Source of the DNA: a virus
Length of the DNA stretch: 40,239 bases
Virus record (IMG/VR): IMGVR_UViG_3300048121_001020
Location: 1 to 40,239 of that record
Direction: 5' to 3' (one strand)
The notes under the pieces are model-generated. The model saw only the letters and a program-made list of their open reading frames with translations, did not search any database and was not told the DNA's origin. Within the stretch, counting starts at the first letter, position 1. Each line of letters opens with the position of its first letter. The translations under genes and the position numbers were made by a program. Of this stretch, positions 6,450 to 11,669 are shown piece by piece.

Positions 6450-7175
6450 ATGTCAACCGAAAAAGAATTAAATACTGATAATCTCAGAGACACTCATTGG
6501 TTAGGAGAAGTTATCGATAATGTCGATCCTCTTAAAATGGGTAGATGTAAGGTTAAGGTCCTAGGTAAATATGATAATTTACCAGATGATGCTATTCCAT
6601 GGGCAACTCCTATGAATAGAGATGCAATAGGTTCACATCATGTTCCAAGAATAGGAGATATAGTTGCAGCTAGATTTGATAATGGAAATTTATATCATCC
6701 TGAATATTGGTTTCAAATAGAACAAAATCTTGATCTTAAAGAAGATATATTAGATGGAGCGGGTAATGCTGAAAACGTAATCAGCTTAGTGTATGATGCT
6801 GAAAGAAACGTAAGAATTTATCACTCAGAAGAAGATGGTCTTGTAATTACTAGAGGATTTGGCGCAAAAGAAAGACCTATAATTCAAATCGACGAAGTAG
6901 GTGATATTAAAATTTCTACGGACGATAGAATATTCATAGATTCAGGAGACGTATATTTAAGTAATACTGGTGAAAGTGGAGAAGATACTTCAGAACCTGC
7001 CGTAAGAGGTAAATCATTAGAAGCATGGTTAGATGAGTATTTAACTCTTTTTGAAAACCACATTCATCCAACTGGTGTTGGTCCATCTGGAACTGCGGTT
7101 TCATTGCCACCTACTCCATCTGGTGTTGCATCTTTAAAGAGTAAGCATCCAGACTATCAACAGGAAAATAAATAA
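6450..7175 (+). CDS. Baseplate spike, OB-fold (gp5/gpV-like, no lysozyme domain)
   Basis: This encodes 241 residues. Residues 17-91 are a clear phage spike OB-fold: WLGEVIDNVDPLKMGRCKVK, then AIPWATPM, then HHVPRIGDIVAARFDNGN and HPEYWFQI. This is the domain found at the start of T4 gp5, P2 gpV and Mu gp45. Residues 110-172 are short repeated strands, suiting a small trimeric beta-helix. Residues 190-215 contain LDEYLTLFENHIHPTGVGPS, whose H204-x-H206 resembles the HxH iron-binding apex motif of P2 gpV-type spikes. T4 gp5 carries a lysozyme domain between OB-fold and helix; none is present here, so peptidoglycan cleavage must come from elsewhere or not be needed. It follows the tube-like gene after three bases and precedes the gene at 7178 by two. 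Confidence 0.85.
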   Translation: MSTEKELNTDNLRDTHWLGEVIDNVDPLKMGRCKVKVLGKYDNLPDDAIPWATPMNRDAIGSHHVPRIGDIVAARFDNGNLYHPEYWFQIEQNLDLKEDILDGAGNAENVISLVYDAERNVRIYHSEEDGLVITRGFGAKERPIIQIDEVGDIKISTDDRIFIDSGDVYLSNTGESGEDTSEPAVRGKSLEAWLDEYLTLFENHIHPTGVGPSGTAVSLPPTPSGVASLKSKHPDYQQENK

Positions 7176-7177
7176 GA

Positions 7178-8893
7178 ATGACTGCACTTTGGCCACTATT
7201 TATAACAAACGTAACTGCAATACTTCTCAATGAAGATCCTAATAGTGCAGGCGATTTCGGCAATAAATTAGCAAATGAATATGTTGCAGCTGTTAAGGGA
7301 CTTTCTACATGTGTTCCTGGAACTGCAATTCATGAGAATTCCCCTGGAGAATCTACATTTATCTCAAGCTATGAGCAATGGTTTACTGACCTTTTTGAAA
7401 AAGGAGAACCTGTCATGGAAACACCAGATACAGAAGAAAAGAAAATAGGAATTGCAACATGGCTTGCAAGTGCAGCCGGAGCAGGATCTAGATTAAATAT
7501 TGCTGGAAAAGATAATGATCCAGAATATAATAAATTAGAAGGAGATATTGGAGGAGGAATTCAATATCAACCCACTGAAGAACTCGATAAGTATTTAGAG
7601 GAGTTTAAAGACGATAGCGAGGAAAACTTATATAGATTTAAGTATTTTGAATTTCACCGCTTAGATGGTGAAGAAACTGGAGATGAATTAGCTAGGATTT
7701 TTGCAACGAGACTATTAATGCAATTTGAAGATATTACAGATAAAGATAAAAGATATGCCTTTTGGGAATGGCTCGATAGATTTAGAAGAAATAAACATGT
7801 TTCAAACTCTAATGGAAGTACGGGTGGGTTTGGTAATAATGTTATTAATCAAAGAAAGGCTAATAGGCAATCAGCCATTCAAAAATTAAAGAGCCTAGAT
7901 TGGAGTTGGGATAGTTTTGTAAAAGATGTTGGTGAAGTTTATAATGCAAACGACAAGGGAGGCGAGTTTCATAAGTTAGTATCTATGTACGTTAGAGAAG
8001 AAATCTTAAAATCACACCCCCTAGATGAAGATGCTGTGGTTGCAACTAATAAAAATGGAGTAGGTAGCGTAACAACAGTGTGGCATGAAAGGGCTATAAA
8101 AATGGAAGCTTCACAGCCTATTAAATATCCATGGCCATTTGACACAGAGCTTCCAGAAAATTATGAAGAAATGGATCCTTCTGAAAAAATGAAGGTTAGA
8201 TATCCTTTTAAACTTACTAATTTAAAAATACAAGAGCCTTTTGACGAAAACAATAAAATGCCTCCCGTACTAACTACCAATGTTATTTCAGAATTCACAT
8301 GGAACGGAACAGAACACTATGGTCAAAGAAAGGATAAAATTAAACCTGATTTTATTAATAATGAATTAAGAAAAAAATGGCAAGGATGTCCGCTAACGGA
8401 AGCAGACGAAGATACAGGTTCTATTGTGAATATAGATATGTCTAAAACGGGAACTTTAGCAAAGCAAATTAGAAATACATTAATAGTTGAATTAGGATTA
8501 GAAGCTGCAATGCTAGCGGAAGGCGGTAGCAAGGACGATCCATATAAAGAGCTTGCAAAAGCAACATTAAAATATTGGAAAGATACTGCGATACAGCCTT
8601 TCGCAACATCTGCACCAACACCTCCATGTTCATCAGTTCCTCCACTGGGAGGAAAGTATATAGGTGTTAGCTATGGAAATCAAAAGAAATTAGCAGATAA
8701 TTTAAGAAGAGCTCTTAATTCAGGTAAAGATTTCGGATTAGATAAAGCTGGAGCTGCATCAGCTGTCGCAAAGGCACTTGCATATTCTTATTTTACTCAT
8801 CTTAGTGAAATGAAATTTATTTATCTTGGAGGTATTCCTGCAGGAACTGTTCCATATATTCCAATGATAGGATTTGACGCCACCGTAATTTGA
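7178..8893 (+). CDS. Large baseplate-associated protein with conserved ends and a long central insert
   Basis: This encodes 571 residues. The ends look like one small phage domain: the first 50 residues (ITNVTAILLNEDPNSAGDFG, then KLANEYVAAVKG) and the last 90 (APTPPCSSVPPLGG, then ALAYSYFTHLSEMKFIYLGG and VPYIPMIGF). Small baseplate-cluster proteins of about 150 residues with this shape occur in other myoviruses. Between them lie about 400 charged residues, including KYFEFHRLDGEETGDELARI and a helical DKRYAFWEWLDRFRRNKH. I recognise no enzymatic motif there. The gene ends the hub-spike unit; its TGA stop (8891-8893) overlaps promoter-like copy 3. A structural baseplate role is inferred from position; the central region is unexplained. 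Confidence 0.65.
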   Translation: MTALWPLFITNVTAILLNEDPNSAGDFGNKLANEYVAAVKGLSTCVPGTAIHENSPGESTFISSYEQWFTDLFEKGEPVMETPDTEEKKIGIATWLASAAGAGSRLNIAGKDNDPEYNKLEGDIGGGIQYQPTEELDKYLEEFKDDSEENLYRFKYFEFHRLDGEETGDELARIFATRLLMQFEDITDKDKRYAFWEWLDRFRRNKHVSNSNGSTGGFGNNVINQRKANRQSAIQKLKSLDWSWDSFVKDVGEVYNANDKGGEFHKLVSMYVREEILKSHPLDEDAVVATNKNGVGSVTTVWHERAIKMEASQPIKYPWPFDTELPENYEEMDPSEKMKVRYPFKLTNLKIQEPFDENNKMPPVLTTNVISEFTWNGTEHYGQRKDKIKPDFINNELRKKWQGCPLTEADEDTGSIVNIDMSKTGTLAKQIRNTLIVELGLEAAMLAEGGSKDDPYKELAKATLKYWKDTAIQPFATSAPTPPCSSVPPLGGKYIGVSYGNQKKLADNLRRALNSGKDFGLDKAGAASAVAKALAYSYFTHLSEMKFIYLGGIPAGTVPYIPMIGFDATVI

Positions 8894-8900
8894 TATATAA
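8892..8900 (+). promoter_or_regulatory. Promoter-like element GATATATAA, copy 3
   Basis: GATATATAA overlaps the TGA stop of the preceding gene and is followed by CTAGTAAAACATA (8901-8913), the same downstream segment as in copy 1. It lies 39 bases before the ATG of the S1-like gene. It is inferred to drive that gene separately from the tail genes. Confidence 0.58.
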
Positions 8901-8939
8901 CTAGTAAAACATACATTAACCCTTTTAAAAACAAAGTAA

Positions 8940-10268
8940 ATGTCAACAAAGACAACTCAAAAACAAAAGAGACCAAGACTCTCTACCACGACAAAGCTTG
9001 TAGAAGCTAATCAAGAAACAGAAGTTAAAGTAGAAACTTCTTTAAAATCAACAAATCCCGAAAAAGTTAAACCTGGCCCAGACACAGATTTTCTAGATGA
9101 AAATGGAGAATTCATGTGGGATCTTTACCAGGCGGATTGTCCTACTAAGTTTAGAAAACCAAATCCACATATTAAAGTACCTAAAGGTGTAAAGGTATAC
9201 AGTAGGGAGCCGTATGCCCAGGAGTTATTTGACTTAATGGAAGGACATTCACTGGCATCTAACACTCTATATTCTCTTAATATCGGTGAAAGCTACACTG
9301 GAAAGGTATATGGAATAGACACCGAGTGGGCTTCAATCGACGTAGGCTATAGAGAATTGATTTACGTAGATTTATCAAGAGAAACTCCAGAAGTAAAAGA
9401 ACTTTTAAAAGAAGGAGTTGAAGTTGATGTTCAGTTAATAGCTGACACGTCAATGAATGTTAAAAAATACATGATAGGTTCCGTAGCGGCAGGTCTTAAG
9501 ACAAAGGTTGTTAAAGAGATTGTAGCTTCAATAGATGATGGAAATACAGCGTATAGCGGTATTGTTAGTAAAATGATTCCAGGTGGAGGATATATTGTAG
9601 AGGTTCAAGGTGTTGATTGCTTTATGCCGGGTTCTTTAGCTGGCGTAAATAAATTACATAACTTTGAGTCTATTATTAATACAGAAATGTATGTAGTTCC
9701 TGTTAGTTATTCTGAAGAAAAAGGAACAGTCGTTGTTTCTCATAGAGCTTATTTAAGAGCACTTATCCCCAACACTATTAAAAATATTCAAGAAGATATT
9801 ACAGTAGAAAGAATAGGCCACGTTACTGGCTCTGCGAAATATGGAGTATTTGTTGAATTTGAAGGATGCTTAACTGGAATGATTCACGTTAACGACCTAG
9901 ATACTGAAACTTCAAAAGCACACAGAGACAGGTCTTTAGAGCCAGGTACTGAAATAAAATTCTATGTTAAAGAAGTTATTAATGAAAGAAAAATAACGTT
10001 AGTACAGGGTTCTCCAGCGGAAAAGAAGGTCGATCCATGGGAAGGTATTTCTTCAAGATACAATAAAAAAACTGAGGTAGTTGGTGTTGTAAAATCTACT
10101 AAAGACTATGGTTTATTTGTAGAAATAGAAGAAGGTGTAGTTGGATTATTACACATATCCGAGTTTCCTGATAATATAGATATTAAAGATATTTCTAAAG
10201 GTGCAGATATTACTGTTCAAGTGATCAGAGTTGAAGAAGATACTAGAAAAGTATTCCTTAAACTATAA
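8940..10268 (+). CDS. Ribosomal protein S1-like protein with four S1 domains
   Basis: This encodes 442 residues. Four S1/OB RNA-binding domains can be read: about 116-181 (TGKVYGIDTEWASIDVGYRE), 203-268 (YSGIVSKMIPGGGYIVEVQG, then CFMPGSLAG), 288-356 (GHVTGSAKYGVFVEFEGCLT, then GMIHVNDL), and 377-442 (GVVKSTKDYGLFVEIEEGVV, then GLLHISEF). The last two are textbook: G-x-V-x-x-x-x-x-[YF]-G-x-F-V then G-[LM]-[IL]-H. Domain 2 has the Cys-Phe-Met-Pro-Gly-Ser seen in the second domain of bacterial S1. The first 110 residues are basic, disordered, then helical (EPYAQELFDLMEGH), possibly the ribosome-docking part. Cellular S1 usually has four to six domains and brings mRNA to the 30S subunit. It has its own promoter-like element and terminator. 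Tex- or PNPase-type enzymes also contain S1 domains, but no catalytic domain is present. Confidence 0.88.
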   Translation: MSTKTTQKQKRPRLSTTTKLVEANQETEVKVETSLKSTNPEKVKPGPDTDFLDENGEFMWDLYQADCPTKFRKPNPHIKVPKGVKVYSREPYAQELFDLMEGHSLASNTLYSLNIGESYTGKVYGIDTEWASIDVGYRELIYVDLSRETPEVKELLKEGVEVDVQLIADTSMNVKKYMIGSVAAGLKTKVVKEIVASIDDGNTAYSGIVSKMIPGGGYIVEVQGVDCFMPGSLAGVNKLHNFESIINTEMYVVPVSYSEEKGTVVVSHRAYLRALIPNTIKNIQEDITVERIGHVTGSAKYGVFVEFEGCLTGMIHVNDLDTETSKAHRDRSLEPGTEIKFYVKEVINERKITLVQGSPAEKKVDPWEGISSRYNKKTEVVGVVKSTKDYGLFVEIEEGVVGLLHISEFPDNIDIKDISKGADITVQVIRVEEDTRKVFLKL

Positions 10269-10287
10269 TCAAATCTATAATTTAGTT

Positions 10288-10315
10288 GAAAGAGCCCGAT
10301 CACTCGGGCTTTTTC
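10288..10315 (+). terminator. Intrinsic terminator after the S1-like gene
   Basis: A 12-base stem, GAAAGAGCCCGA pairing with TCGGGCTTTTTC (one G-T wobble), closes a four-base TCAC loop. The GC-rich core AGCCCGA/TCGGGCT is followed by a run of Ts. It stands 19 bases after the stop codon in the window's longest intergenic gap. The A-run before the stem may also let it act on the opposite strand. It is by far the clearest terminator in the window. Confidence 0.92.
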
Positions 10316-10337
10316 ACGTTATAGTGTATCTAACAGA

Positions 10338-10373: not shown

Positions 10374-11669
10374 ATGAATAATATTAATAATTCAGACATA
10401 TTAAAGAATGCACTAGTAGGCGTTGAATTTGAATTTTATTCTAATAAGGATATCGATACGACTGCTAAGGAATTAGCGGGTCTTTTAGGTAAAAAGATTA
10501 GAGTAGAAGCAAAGGCACATAGTGATTTTGAAGTTACAAGAGATGAGTTTAAAATTGAACCTGATATGTCAGGTGGTGAAAAACTAATGGAACTTGTAAC
10601 TGGTGCACAGCCATATTATGCTGCAAGGATGATGATTATTAAAGTATGTAAATGGATAGAAGAAAATGGATATACAAATGATAGAAGTTCTATTCACTTA
10701 AACCTTTCTTTCGATACTGATAAAATAGAAAATAAGCATAGAATATCTAAGATGAATGTTCTTAAATTTATTTTAGATTTTAAAGAAAGTCAAGTCTTTA
10801 AGTTTTTTCCTGAAAGAAAGGATTCTGCATACGCAAAATCAATCAAATTCGTTCTACCCAAGTCAGATACTTATTTCTACGATGGATTAAATATTACTCC
10901 TAGTAATTTCATATATCCTGATTCTAAATATTATGGAATTAACTTTGAAAAAAGACATAAGAATTATTTAGAATTTAGATATCTCGGTGGAGAAGATTGG
11001 GAAAAGAAAACTTCTAAGATTCTACAAATGCTAGATCTTTTCATAACTCAATTGTGGAATAGTACAAGTGGAGTTCAATTTAATAATCTTAATTCTATAG
11101 AACTTAGAAAAATTCTTGCTAAGAATGAAAGAATTATAAAGGCTAGAAAAGATTGGAAAACTATTAATACAGGTTGGAATCAAGATGTTAAATTAACGGT
11201 TGATTTAAATGACAATGAAAAGATAATAGATTTACACTGGCCTAATATTAGGGAAAGAGTTCTTAGGTTATTTACTCATGGTGAATTAACAAAAGGACAT
11301 ATTAACTATGATGCCGATAATGGTACAATTCAAGTTGATCACGGTAACTTATCATATTGTGTAGAATTAGAAGGATATGAATTTGTAAGATGTTCTTTGA
11401 GAGGAGAATTTACAAATTGCGATTTCTTCGGATGTGATATAAATGGATCCGATATACACACTTGTAATTTTTATCAATCTACTCAAATTAATTCCTCTAA
11501 ATTAGAAAGTTCTTATGTTCATCAGTCATGTGTATTAAAAGACTGTTACATATATGGAAATGGAATAATGAAAGGGACGATGCAAGGTGGTATATTTAGA
11601 GATGGTAAATATGATAAAAGAACCGCAAGGTTTGACAATACTGAAAAAATACTTTATACAGAAGTTTAA
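10374..11669 (+). CDS. Amidoligase-like (glutamine-synthetase-fold) enzyme with pentapeptide-like C-terminus
   Basis: This encodes 431 residues. The first 230 match the GS-like amidoligase (COOH-NH2 ligase) pattern: G16-x-E18-x-E20 in LVGVEFEF; KIEPDMSGG then LMELVTG (D64, E73); SSIHLNLSF (H108, N110); and YLEFRYLGG (E200, R202). In this family these residues hold ATP-Mg and the substrate, and the enzymes join a carboxylate to an amine to form amide or isopeptide bonds. Residues about 328-410 form a different domain with near five-residue periodicity and regular cysteines (C340, C349, C354, C364, C386, C391), as in pentapeptide right-handed helices (CSLRGEFTNCDFFGCDINGS). It lies between hub and wedge genes, directly after the S1-like unit. 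Substrate is unknown: a virion protein, the host envelope or a ribosomal protein are all possible. Confidence 0.75.
   Translation: MNNINNSDILKNALVGVEFEFYSNKDIDTTAKELAGLLGKKIRVEAKAHSDFEVTRDEFKIEPDMSGGEKLMELVTGAQPYYAARMMIIKVCKWIEENGYTNDRSSIHLNLSFDTDKIENKHRISKMNVLKFILDFKESQVFKFFPERKDSAYAKSIKFVLPKSDTYFYDGLNITPSNFIYPDSKYYGINFEKRHKNYLEFRYLGGEDWEKKTSKILQMLDLFITQLWNSTSGVQFNNLNSIELRKILAKNERIIKARKDWKTINTGWNQDVKLTVDLNDNEKIIDLHWPNIRERVLRLFTHGELTKGHINYDADNGTIQVDHGNLSYCVELEGYEFVRCSLRGEFTNCDFFGCDINGSDIHTCNFYQSTQINSSKLESSYVHQSCVLKDCYIYGNGIMKGTMQGGIFRDGKYDKRTARFDNTEKILYTEV

What the first reader, a model, noticed from the sequence alone, without database searches (positions are those of the whole stretch)
8940..10268. 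Phage-encoded ribosomal protein S1-like protein inside the tail gene block
Four S1/OB domains with no attached catalytic domain make this look like a viral S1 rather than a nuclease or Tex-type protein. Seen directly: S1 signatures at residues 116-181, 203-268, 288-356 and 377-442. Known: S1 brings mRNA to the 30S subunit, and some phages encode ribosomal proteins. Inferred: in a phage whose genes lack Shine-Dalgarno sequences and use A-rich leaders, a viral S1 could replace or compete with host S1 and favour late phage messages. Its place between hub and wedge genes would match its output to structural-protein synthesis.
Basis: partly seen in the sequence, partly recalled or inferred. Interest (0 to 1): 0.82.

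Follow-up and report, generated by a model that had tools for sequence, protein, structure and literature searches.

The report
Huge-phage copy of ribosomal protein S1
This gene encodes a phage version of the bacterial ribosomal protein S1, a protein that brings messenger RNA to the ribosome; it is a fixed part of the tail-gene block in a large group of phages of Bacteroidota, and it probably helps the ribosome make phage particle proteins late in infection, an idea already published for related huge phages.

Summary
ORF 8940-10268 (442 aa) has four S1/OB domains and no catalytic domain. By sequence, profile and predicted fold it matches bacterial bS1 domains 1-4 in order, not Tex or an RNase. 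It also keeps bS1's ribosome-docking parts (N-terminal helix, basic loop-2 residue) and an N-terminal F-x-W motif found in 31/32 Bacteroidia S1s and 0/18 other S1s. It belongs to one old, phage-only S1 family in huge T4-like phages (Lak, LR7565xx, hundreds of IMG/VR contigs). In its own clade it is a core gene: 96/96 tail blocks carry it at the same place. It looks like a separate transcription unit: a promoter-like element shared with head and tail genes lies upstream (61/61 S1 genes), and a strong terminator follows in the window.

Late expression and ribosome docking look likely. But Shine-Dalgarno-less, A-rich leaders are a host trait: related Tenacibaculum phages without S1 have them too. 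Viral S1 and its supposed role were published in 2020. New here: the docking and host signatures, the late-type promoter, the core-gene status, and frequent co-encoding of bS21 with the Bacteroidia-specific Tyr54. Ribosome binding and mRNA preference are not shown.

The parts
8892..8900 (+). GATATATAA, promoter-like element (RATATATAM) upstream of S1, shared with head and tail genes
   Evidence: Present 33-55 nt upstream of the ATG in 61 of 61 distinct S1 leaders; all 9 window copies are on the + strand although the number itself is not above chance; 31 + against 4 - in the 178.7-kb relative, upstream of portal, head protease, terminase-like, tail tube and baseplate genes
8916..8927 (+). TTAACCCTTTTA, conserved element in the S1 leader; candidate translational or autoregulatory site
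   Evidence: TTAAC/TTACAC...TTTA at about -21 to -26 in 41 of 54 distinct S1 leaders; a loose form of the motif is at background level upstream of other genes (8 of 200, S1 included). Function is inference
8940..10268 (+). phage bS1-type protein, 442 aa, four S1/OB domains
9111..9119 (+). F58-x-W60, N-terminal motif shared with Bacteroidia S1
   Evidence: Motif in 31/32 Bacteroidia S1, 0/18 other S1, 76/76 phage-clade S1; F58 and W60 invariant in 46/46
9216..9257 (+). N-terminal helix (residues 93-106; motif YAQEL(F/Y)D), equivalent of the bS1 helix that docks on uS2
   Evidence: Helix 93-106 in the AF2 model; aligned with E. coli S1 from residue 4 by hhalign; A93 invariant, Y92 45/46; docking role of the E. 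coli helix from PMC10123108
9285..9482 (+). OB domain 1; R138 takes the place of E. coli Lys43, which enters the uS2 zinc pocket
   Evidence: Best profile match D1, E = 4.5e-10; R/K in 46/46
9546..9743 (+). OB domain 2, with family motif CFMPGSLAGxNKL
   Evidence: Best profile match D2, E = 5.5e-14; invariant FMPGSLAG
9801..10007 (+). OB domain 3, canonical S1 RNA-binding residues kept (Y301, F304, H316)
   Evidence: Profile matches D5, D4, D3 in that order; residues conserved
10068..10265 (+). OB domain 4, preceded by the DPWxxIxxRY linker; Y390, F393, H405 invariant
   Evidence: Best profile match D4, E = 2.8e-21; invariant residues
10290..10314 (+). intrinsic terminator after S1 (GAGCCCGA-UCAC-UCGGGCUUUUU)
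   Evidence: dG -23.3 kcal/mol for 10269-10325, z = -7.1; hairpin plus T-run also follows most other S1 genes; the simple scanner did not list it
6450..7175 (+). neighbour: baseplate hub OB protein (gp5-like)
   Evidence: PF04717 E = 3.6e-6, phrog_37871 and phrog_430
10374..11669 (+). neighbour directly downstream: amidoligase-like protein, always next to S1 in this clade
   Evidence: PF12224 E = 3.3e-6; S1 followed by g11 in all 115 loci with S1 and in LR756500
12536..14729 (+). neighbours: gp25-like and gp6-like baseplate wedge genes
   Evidence: PF04965 and phrog_43; phrog_219 E = 1.3e-35

Best explanation
The gene encodes a shortened viral homologue of ribosomal protein bS1 (domains 1-4). 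It is made late in infection from its own promoter together with head and tail proteins. It most likely docks on uS2 of the Bacteroidota host 30S subunit through its N-terminal helix and domain 1. Domains 3-4 would then hold the A-rich leaders of phage messages near the mRNA exit site, taking over or supplementing host S1 while large amounts of virion protein are made; in many of these phages a viral bS21 acts at the same site. Shown here: the homology and domain order, the docking and host signatures, the core position, and the promoter-like element and terminator. Inferred: late timing from the shared promoter-like element, ribosome binding, displacement of host S1, preference for phage mRNA.
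For: Sequence, profile and fold searches all give ribosomal S1 first: phmmer 1.5e-35, profile against PDB 3.2e-51, Foldseek top hit the bS1-resolved 30S mRNA delivery complex 9gut at 5.4e-24. Domains 1, 2 and 4 match E. coli D1, D2 and D4 best. A93 and a basic residue at the Lys43 position are invariant and Y92 nearly so (E. coli contacts from PMC10123108). F-x-W motif: 31/32 Bacteroidia, 0/18 others, 76/76 phage clade. RATATATAM-type element upstream in 61/61 S1 genes and upstream of portal, head protease and tail tube genes. Core gene in 96/96 tail blocks under purifying selection. bS21 in 26 of 43 S1-bearing records, with Tyr54 kept (PMC9976891). An identical relative of the window (L003 record) has bS21 about 19 kb upstream of S1.
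Against: No experiment. Curated rpsA models are matched far below their cut-offs (133 bits against 577) and the branch to bacterial S1 is very long (4.6 changes per site), so function may have drifted. Domains 5-6 are missing. Residue-by-residue equivalence in the docking helix is ambiguous (hhalign places L96 and M100, not Y92 and L96, on Phe5 and Phe9). Related phages of Bacteroidota do without S1. Lak S1 has lost D4 and lies outside the tail block.
Confidence: 0.6

Rival explanations
1. Off-ribosome RNA-binding protein: the phage S1 binds late phage mRNAs and keeps them unfolded or shields them from nucleases, without being a stable part of the 30S subunit.
For: Domains 3-4 keep the canonical RNA-binding residues; Al-Shayeb et al. 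left open action 'on or off the ribosome' (PMC7162821); the family is far from bacterial S1; the Lak member lies beside RNA ligase and tRNA-His guanylyltransferase genes.
Against: The docking helix, domain 1 and the basic loop-2 residue would not need to be kept for this.
Confidence: 0.22
2. Virion component: the protein is part of, or packaged with, the tail or is injected with the genome, which would explain its fixed place among hub and wedge genes.
For: Core position in 96/96 tail blocks; next to g24/g25 homologues in LR756504 and to a tail tube gene in the 735-kb genome; shares the late-type promoter element.
Against: No match to any tail family; the RNA-binding residues are conserved; in Lak it lies among replication and tRNA genes; own promoter-like element and terminator set it apart from the tail operons.
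Confidence: 0.1
3. Counter-defence or resilience role: viral S1 replaces a host S1 that is degraded, modified or limiting during infection, with no preference for phage mRNA.
For: Same docking evidence as the main reading; frequent co-encoding with bS21, another exchangeable protein at the same site.
Against: Nothing here shows loss of host S1; relatives without the gene exist.
Confidence: 0.07
4. Host contamination or a misassembled bacterial gene.
For: Phage collections do contain such errors: the Acinetobacter 'phage' hit lies in a cmk-rpsA-himD chromosomal context.
Against: 115 syntenic loci in phage tail blocks, a phage-only clade with 100/100 support, conserved phage promoter element.
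Confidence: 0.01

Closest known systems
Huge-phage 'rpS1' (Al-Shayeb et al. 2020, PMC7162821; genomes LR7565xx, LR745206) and Lak megaphage S1
   Same: Same protein family: one clade with 100/100 support, shared D2 and D3 motifs; same lack of Shine-Dalgarno sites
   Different: The window's clade keeps the longer N-terminus with F-x-W, sits always between hub and amidoligase-like genes, and has the RATATATAM element; Lak lacks D4; the very large genomes other than Lak lack the F-x-W motif (0 of 5)
Bacterial ribosomal protein bS1 (rpsA), above all of Bacteroidia
   Same: Domains 1-4 in order, DPW-RY linker, docking helix, basic loop-2 residue, F-x-W N-terminus
   Different: No domains 5-6; about 27% identity; below NCBIfam cut-offs; distinct D2 motif FMPGSLAGxNKL; not a recent copy of a host gene
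Phage-encoded bS21 of Bacteroidota phages (Chen et al. 2022, PMC9723584; Mizuno et al. 2019, PMC6375957)
   Same: A viral initiation-site protein placed among structural genes and linked to late infection
   Different: S1 is the mRNA-binding partner, with its own promoter-like element and terminator; late timing here rests on sequence only, not on RNA data
bS1 of Microcystis jumbo phage PhiMa05 (PMC13157829)
   Same: Phage-encoded bS1
   Different: Reported as acquired from a Vampirovibrio-like host together with other ribosomal proteins; not compared directly here
BFVD entries A0A7S9STL2 (Virus NIOZ-UU157), A0A8D9CG03, A0A6J5NIG6
   Same: Closest viral structures (E 1.4e-40 to 3.8e-25), two already named 30S ribosomal protein S1
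   Different: Uncharacterised as far as found here; 21-40% identical

Membership tests
bacterial ribosomal protein bS1 | 4-6 tandem S1/OB domains without a catalytic domain | tested here: met
   Four domains; 4-6 repeats per PMC6375957
bacterial ribosomal protein bS1 | Domains in the D1-D2-D3-D4 order of bS1 | tested here: met
   D1, D2, D4 match their counterparts best; D3 matches D5 then D4 then D3, so D3 alone is inconclusive; continuous alignment 95-440 to 4-344
bacterial ribosomal protein bS1 | uS2-docking N-terminal helix and Lys43 loop | tested here: met
   Helix 93-106; R/K138 in 46/46; exact residue pairing in the helix ambiguous
bacterial ribosomal protein bS1 | Curated NCBIfam rpsA cut-off (TIGR00717 and PRK06299 models) | tested here: not met
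   133 bits against 577; all models below cut-off. So filed as an S1-type homologue, not as rpsA itself
bacterial ribosomal protein bS1 | Resides on the 30S subunit and supports mRNA recruitment | not testable with these tools
   Needs infected-cell ribosomes or in vitro assays
huge-phage S1 family | Common ancestry with LR7565xx and Lak S1 to the exclusion of bacterial S1 | tested here: met
   15 phage rows on one side, 100/100; long-branch warning noted
Tex / RNase R / PNPase | Full-length match with a catalytic or Tex core | tested here: not met
   Only single-domain matches to PNPase and Tex; bS1 fills the top structural ranks
phage tail structural protein | Sequence match to a tail family | tested here: not met
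   No PHROG match at E 0.1
phage tail structural protein | Presence in virions | not testable with these tools
   No virion proteome found for this clade

The most novel reading that the evidence does not exclude
These phages rebuild the mRNA exit site of the Bacteroidota 30S subunit late in infection with two viral proteins that would touch each other there (bS1 and bS21 are in contact in E. coli), giving phage-specialised ribosomes; the S1 gene keeps its own supply in check through the conserved TTAACCYTTTA leader element.
Probability: 0.25. Interest if true: 0.78.

Novelty: new member of a known kind. Interest (0 to 1): 0.5.

Why it matters
Whether a virus can specialise the host ribosome for its own messages is an open question. 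Bacteroidota ribosomes ignore Shine-Dalgarno sites, and S1 is suspected, not proven, to read their A-rich leaders. A viral four-domain S1 that kept the docking and RNA-binding parts, and often comes with bS21, is a natural tool to test both points. The comparison with S1-less Tenacibaculum phages also suggests that the published link between viral S1 and missing Shine-Dalgarno sites may largely reflect the host.

Tried and rejected
Tex, RNase or PNPase identity: rejected by domain coverage. Recent capture of the host gene: rejected by the tree, where phage S1s are one long-branched clade apart from all bacterial S1s, Bacteroidia included. Shine-Dalgarno absence as evidence for viral S1 function: rejected as confounded by host. 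Strict coupling of S1 and bS21: rejected, 26 of 43 records, absent in 234-kb contigs, LR756500 and Lak; some records are fragments. Count of RATATATAM in the window is not above chance (9 against 7.9); only strand, position and conservation speak for it. tblastn with a bS21 query across the phage collection was too insensitive (1 hit), so no background rate of bS21 was obtained. The weak Phage_capsid match is below cut-off and ignored. The faecal 'Bacteriophage sp.' and short ECO95/LM S1 hits were not examined. Pfam scans of the 178.7-kb relative showed only the top 25 of 47 and 51 families, so further translation genes cannot be excluded.

Full report
What is there. ORF 8940-10268 encodes 442 aa. 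Pfam finds S1 domains (E = 6.6e-21). phmmer finds E. coli bS1 over domains 1-4 (1.5e-35), and a 46-member family profile reaches 3.2e-51. An AlphaFold2 model (mean pLDDT 73; domain packing not reliable, pTM 0.44) shows a helix at 93-106 and four barrels. Foldseek ranks bS1 first, with the bS1-resolved 30S mRNA delivery complex at 5.4e-24 over 371 columns. Matches to RNase R, PNPase, NusA and Tex are partial or single-domain.

Which S1 domains. Profile comparison of each phage domain with each bacterial domain gives D1 to D1 (4.5e-10), D2 to D2 (5.5e-14) and D4 to D4 (2.8e-21, almost tied with D5). D3 matches D5, D4 and D3 in that order. The DPWxxIxxRY linker before D4 is kept. So the protein is an S1 cut after domain 4. 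Domains 3 and 4 keep the aromatic and histidine residues of canonical S1 folds (Y301, F304, H316; Y390, F393, H405). Domains 1 and 2 lack them, as in bacterial bS1, where the first two domains mainly serve docking (PMC10123108).

Docking module. In E. coli the N-terminal helix of bS1 (Phe5, Gln7, Phe9, Glu10) binds uS2, Lys43 enters the uS2 zinc pocket, and bS21 touches domain 1 (PMC10123108). The phage proteins have a conserved helix motif YAQEL(F/Y)D just before domain 1, and R or K at the Lys43 position in 46 of 46. The register in the helix is ambiguous: by eye Y92-A93-Q94 matches Phe5-Ala6-Gln7, while hhalign shifts it by four. Upstream of the helix, a motif F-x-W-(D/E/N/H) is present in 31 of 32 Bacteroidia S1 proteins, 0 of 18 other S1 proteins and 76 of 76 phage-clade proteins. 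I know of no described function for the motif. It ties the family to Bacteroidia.

Family and distribution. In annotated phages the clear relatives are the huge phages LR756500-504 and LR745206 and the Lak megaphages. IMG/VR holds 531 confirmed stretches. A tree of domains 1-4 puts all 15 phage rows together (100/100), separated from bacterial S1 by a very long branch (long-branch warning applies). This is an old phage family, not a recent host capture. The closest baseplate gp6 homologues in the phage collection come from the same S1-bearing genomes, followed by Tenacibaculum phages that have none.

Position. The 64 close relatives keep the order hub - g09 - S1 - amidoligase-like - g12 - wedges wherever the contig reaches far enough. 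Of loci with the gp6-like wedge gene and more than 7.5 kb upstream of it, 96 of 96 carry S1 there; part of these loci were fetched with S1 itself and only the best 80 wedge hits were kept, so more distant phages may differ. LR756500 keeps the order at 30-40% identity. In LR756502, LR745206 and LR756504 the gene lies beside other genes of the window's late block, and in the 735-kb genome beside a tail tube gene. In Lak it lies beside a tRNA-His guanylyltransferase, a DnaB helicase and an RNA ligase. The tail association is therefore strong but not absolute, which argues against a structural tail role.

Expression. Every one of 61 distinct S1 leaders has an ATATATA/TATATAA element 33-55 nt before the ATG. 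In the 178.7-kb relative the element RATATATAM occurs 31 times on the coding-rich strand and 4 times on the other, and precedes portal, head maturation protease, a terminase-small-subunit-like gene, tail tube and several baseplate genes. In the window all nine copies are on the + strand and seven lie within 60 nt upstream of a gene start, although their number is not above chance. A strong hairpin with a T-run follows S1 (dG -23.3, z -7.1) and most relatives have one too. S1 thus looks like a separate late transcription unit; the more distant huge phages do not show the element upstream of S1. A second element, TTAACCYTTTA, lies at about -21 to -26 in most S1 leaders but is at background level elsewhere. 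Because E. coli S1 represses its own mRNA (established knowledge), an autoregulatory site is a fair guess and no more.

The bS21 partner. bS21 is encoded in 26 of 43 S1-bearing records, including four of the five very large genomes other than Lak that were searched (LR756501, LR756502, LR756504, LR745206; not LR756500), and by the record L003, which is identical to the window over 18 genes; there bS21 lies about 19 kb upstream of S1. The phage bS21s keep the tyrosine equivalent to Tyr54, which in F. johnsoniae stacks on the 16S tail and is unique to Bacteroidia (PMC9976891). The host is therefore most likely a Bacteroidota.

Shine-Dalgarno argument. The window (2 of 25 genes against 0.9 by shuffling) and the relative (7 of 154 against 5.2) lack Shine-Dalgarno sites and have A-rich leaders. 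Tenacibaculum phages PTm1 and pT24 show the same (1 of 50 and 0 of 25; A about 0.51-0.56) and have no S1 domain and no bS21 by HMM.

Mechanism. The best reading is a late-made viral S1 that docks on the host 30S subunit and handles A-rich phage leaders, replacing or supplementing host S1. The structural logic is that bS1 domain 4 lies near mRNA positions -12 to -15, where Bacteroidota leaders are A-rich (PMC6847099). Ribosome binding, displacement of host S1 and mRNA preference are inferred.

Novelty. Huge-phage rpS1 and its proposed role were published in 2020 (PMC7162821), and late-stage use of viral bS21 in 2022 (PMC9723584). Not found in the papers read: the Bacteroidia F-x-W signature, the kept docking module, the conserved late-type promoter element and terminator, and the core-gene status. 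Supplementary tables were not available, so some of the co-occurrence with bS21 may already be listed there.

Noticed in passing
window 10374-11669: Amidoligase-like protein (PF12224) that always follows S1, with dN/dS 0.02-0.05, the lowest of the genes compared; the role of an amidoligase in a tail block is unknown.
   Followed up: partly
window 8916-8927 and S1 leaders of relatives: TTAACCYTTTA element at about -21 to -26 in most S1 leaders, at background level in other leaders; candidate autoregulatory site.
   Followed up: partly
window 1393, 5160, 8892, 10338, 24263, 32766, 39658 (+): RATATATAM promoter-like element 12-48 nt upstream of structural genes; looks like the late promoter of this phage group.
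   Followed up: partly
L157, L223, L224 around 1193-2053: Phage bS21 lies between two small genes whose products resemble each other (shared ...YFEE.EEYE.C... motif); function unknown.
   Followed up: no
Bacteroidia S1 N-termini (L158-L187, L212, L213): F-x-W motif just before the uS2-docking helix, nearly universal in the Bacteroidia S1 sampled and absent in the other S1 sampled; no described function known to me.
   Followed up: partly
L028:5698-6009: S1 reading frame stops after 103 aa in this otherwise normal tail block; sequencing error or a broken copy.
   Followed up: no
L218 (CAKLQH020000011.1): Record named Acinetobacter phage carries cmk-rpsA-himD-pyrF, a bacterial chromosomal context; likely contamination of the phage collection.
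   Followed up: yes
L072, L073 (Lak phages): Lak S1 has fewer recognisable domains: D4 is replaced by a charged tail and D1 is barely recognisable; the gene lies beside tRNA-His guanylyltransferase.
   Followed up: partly
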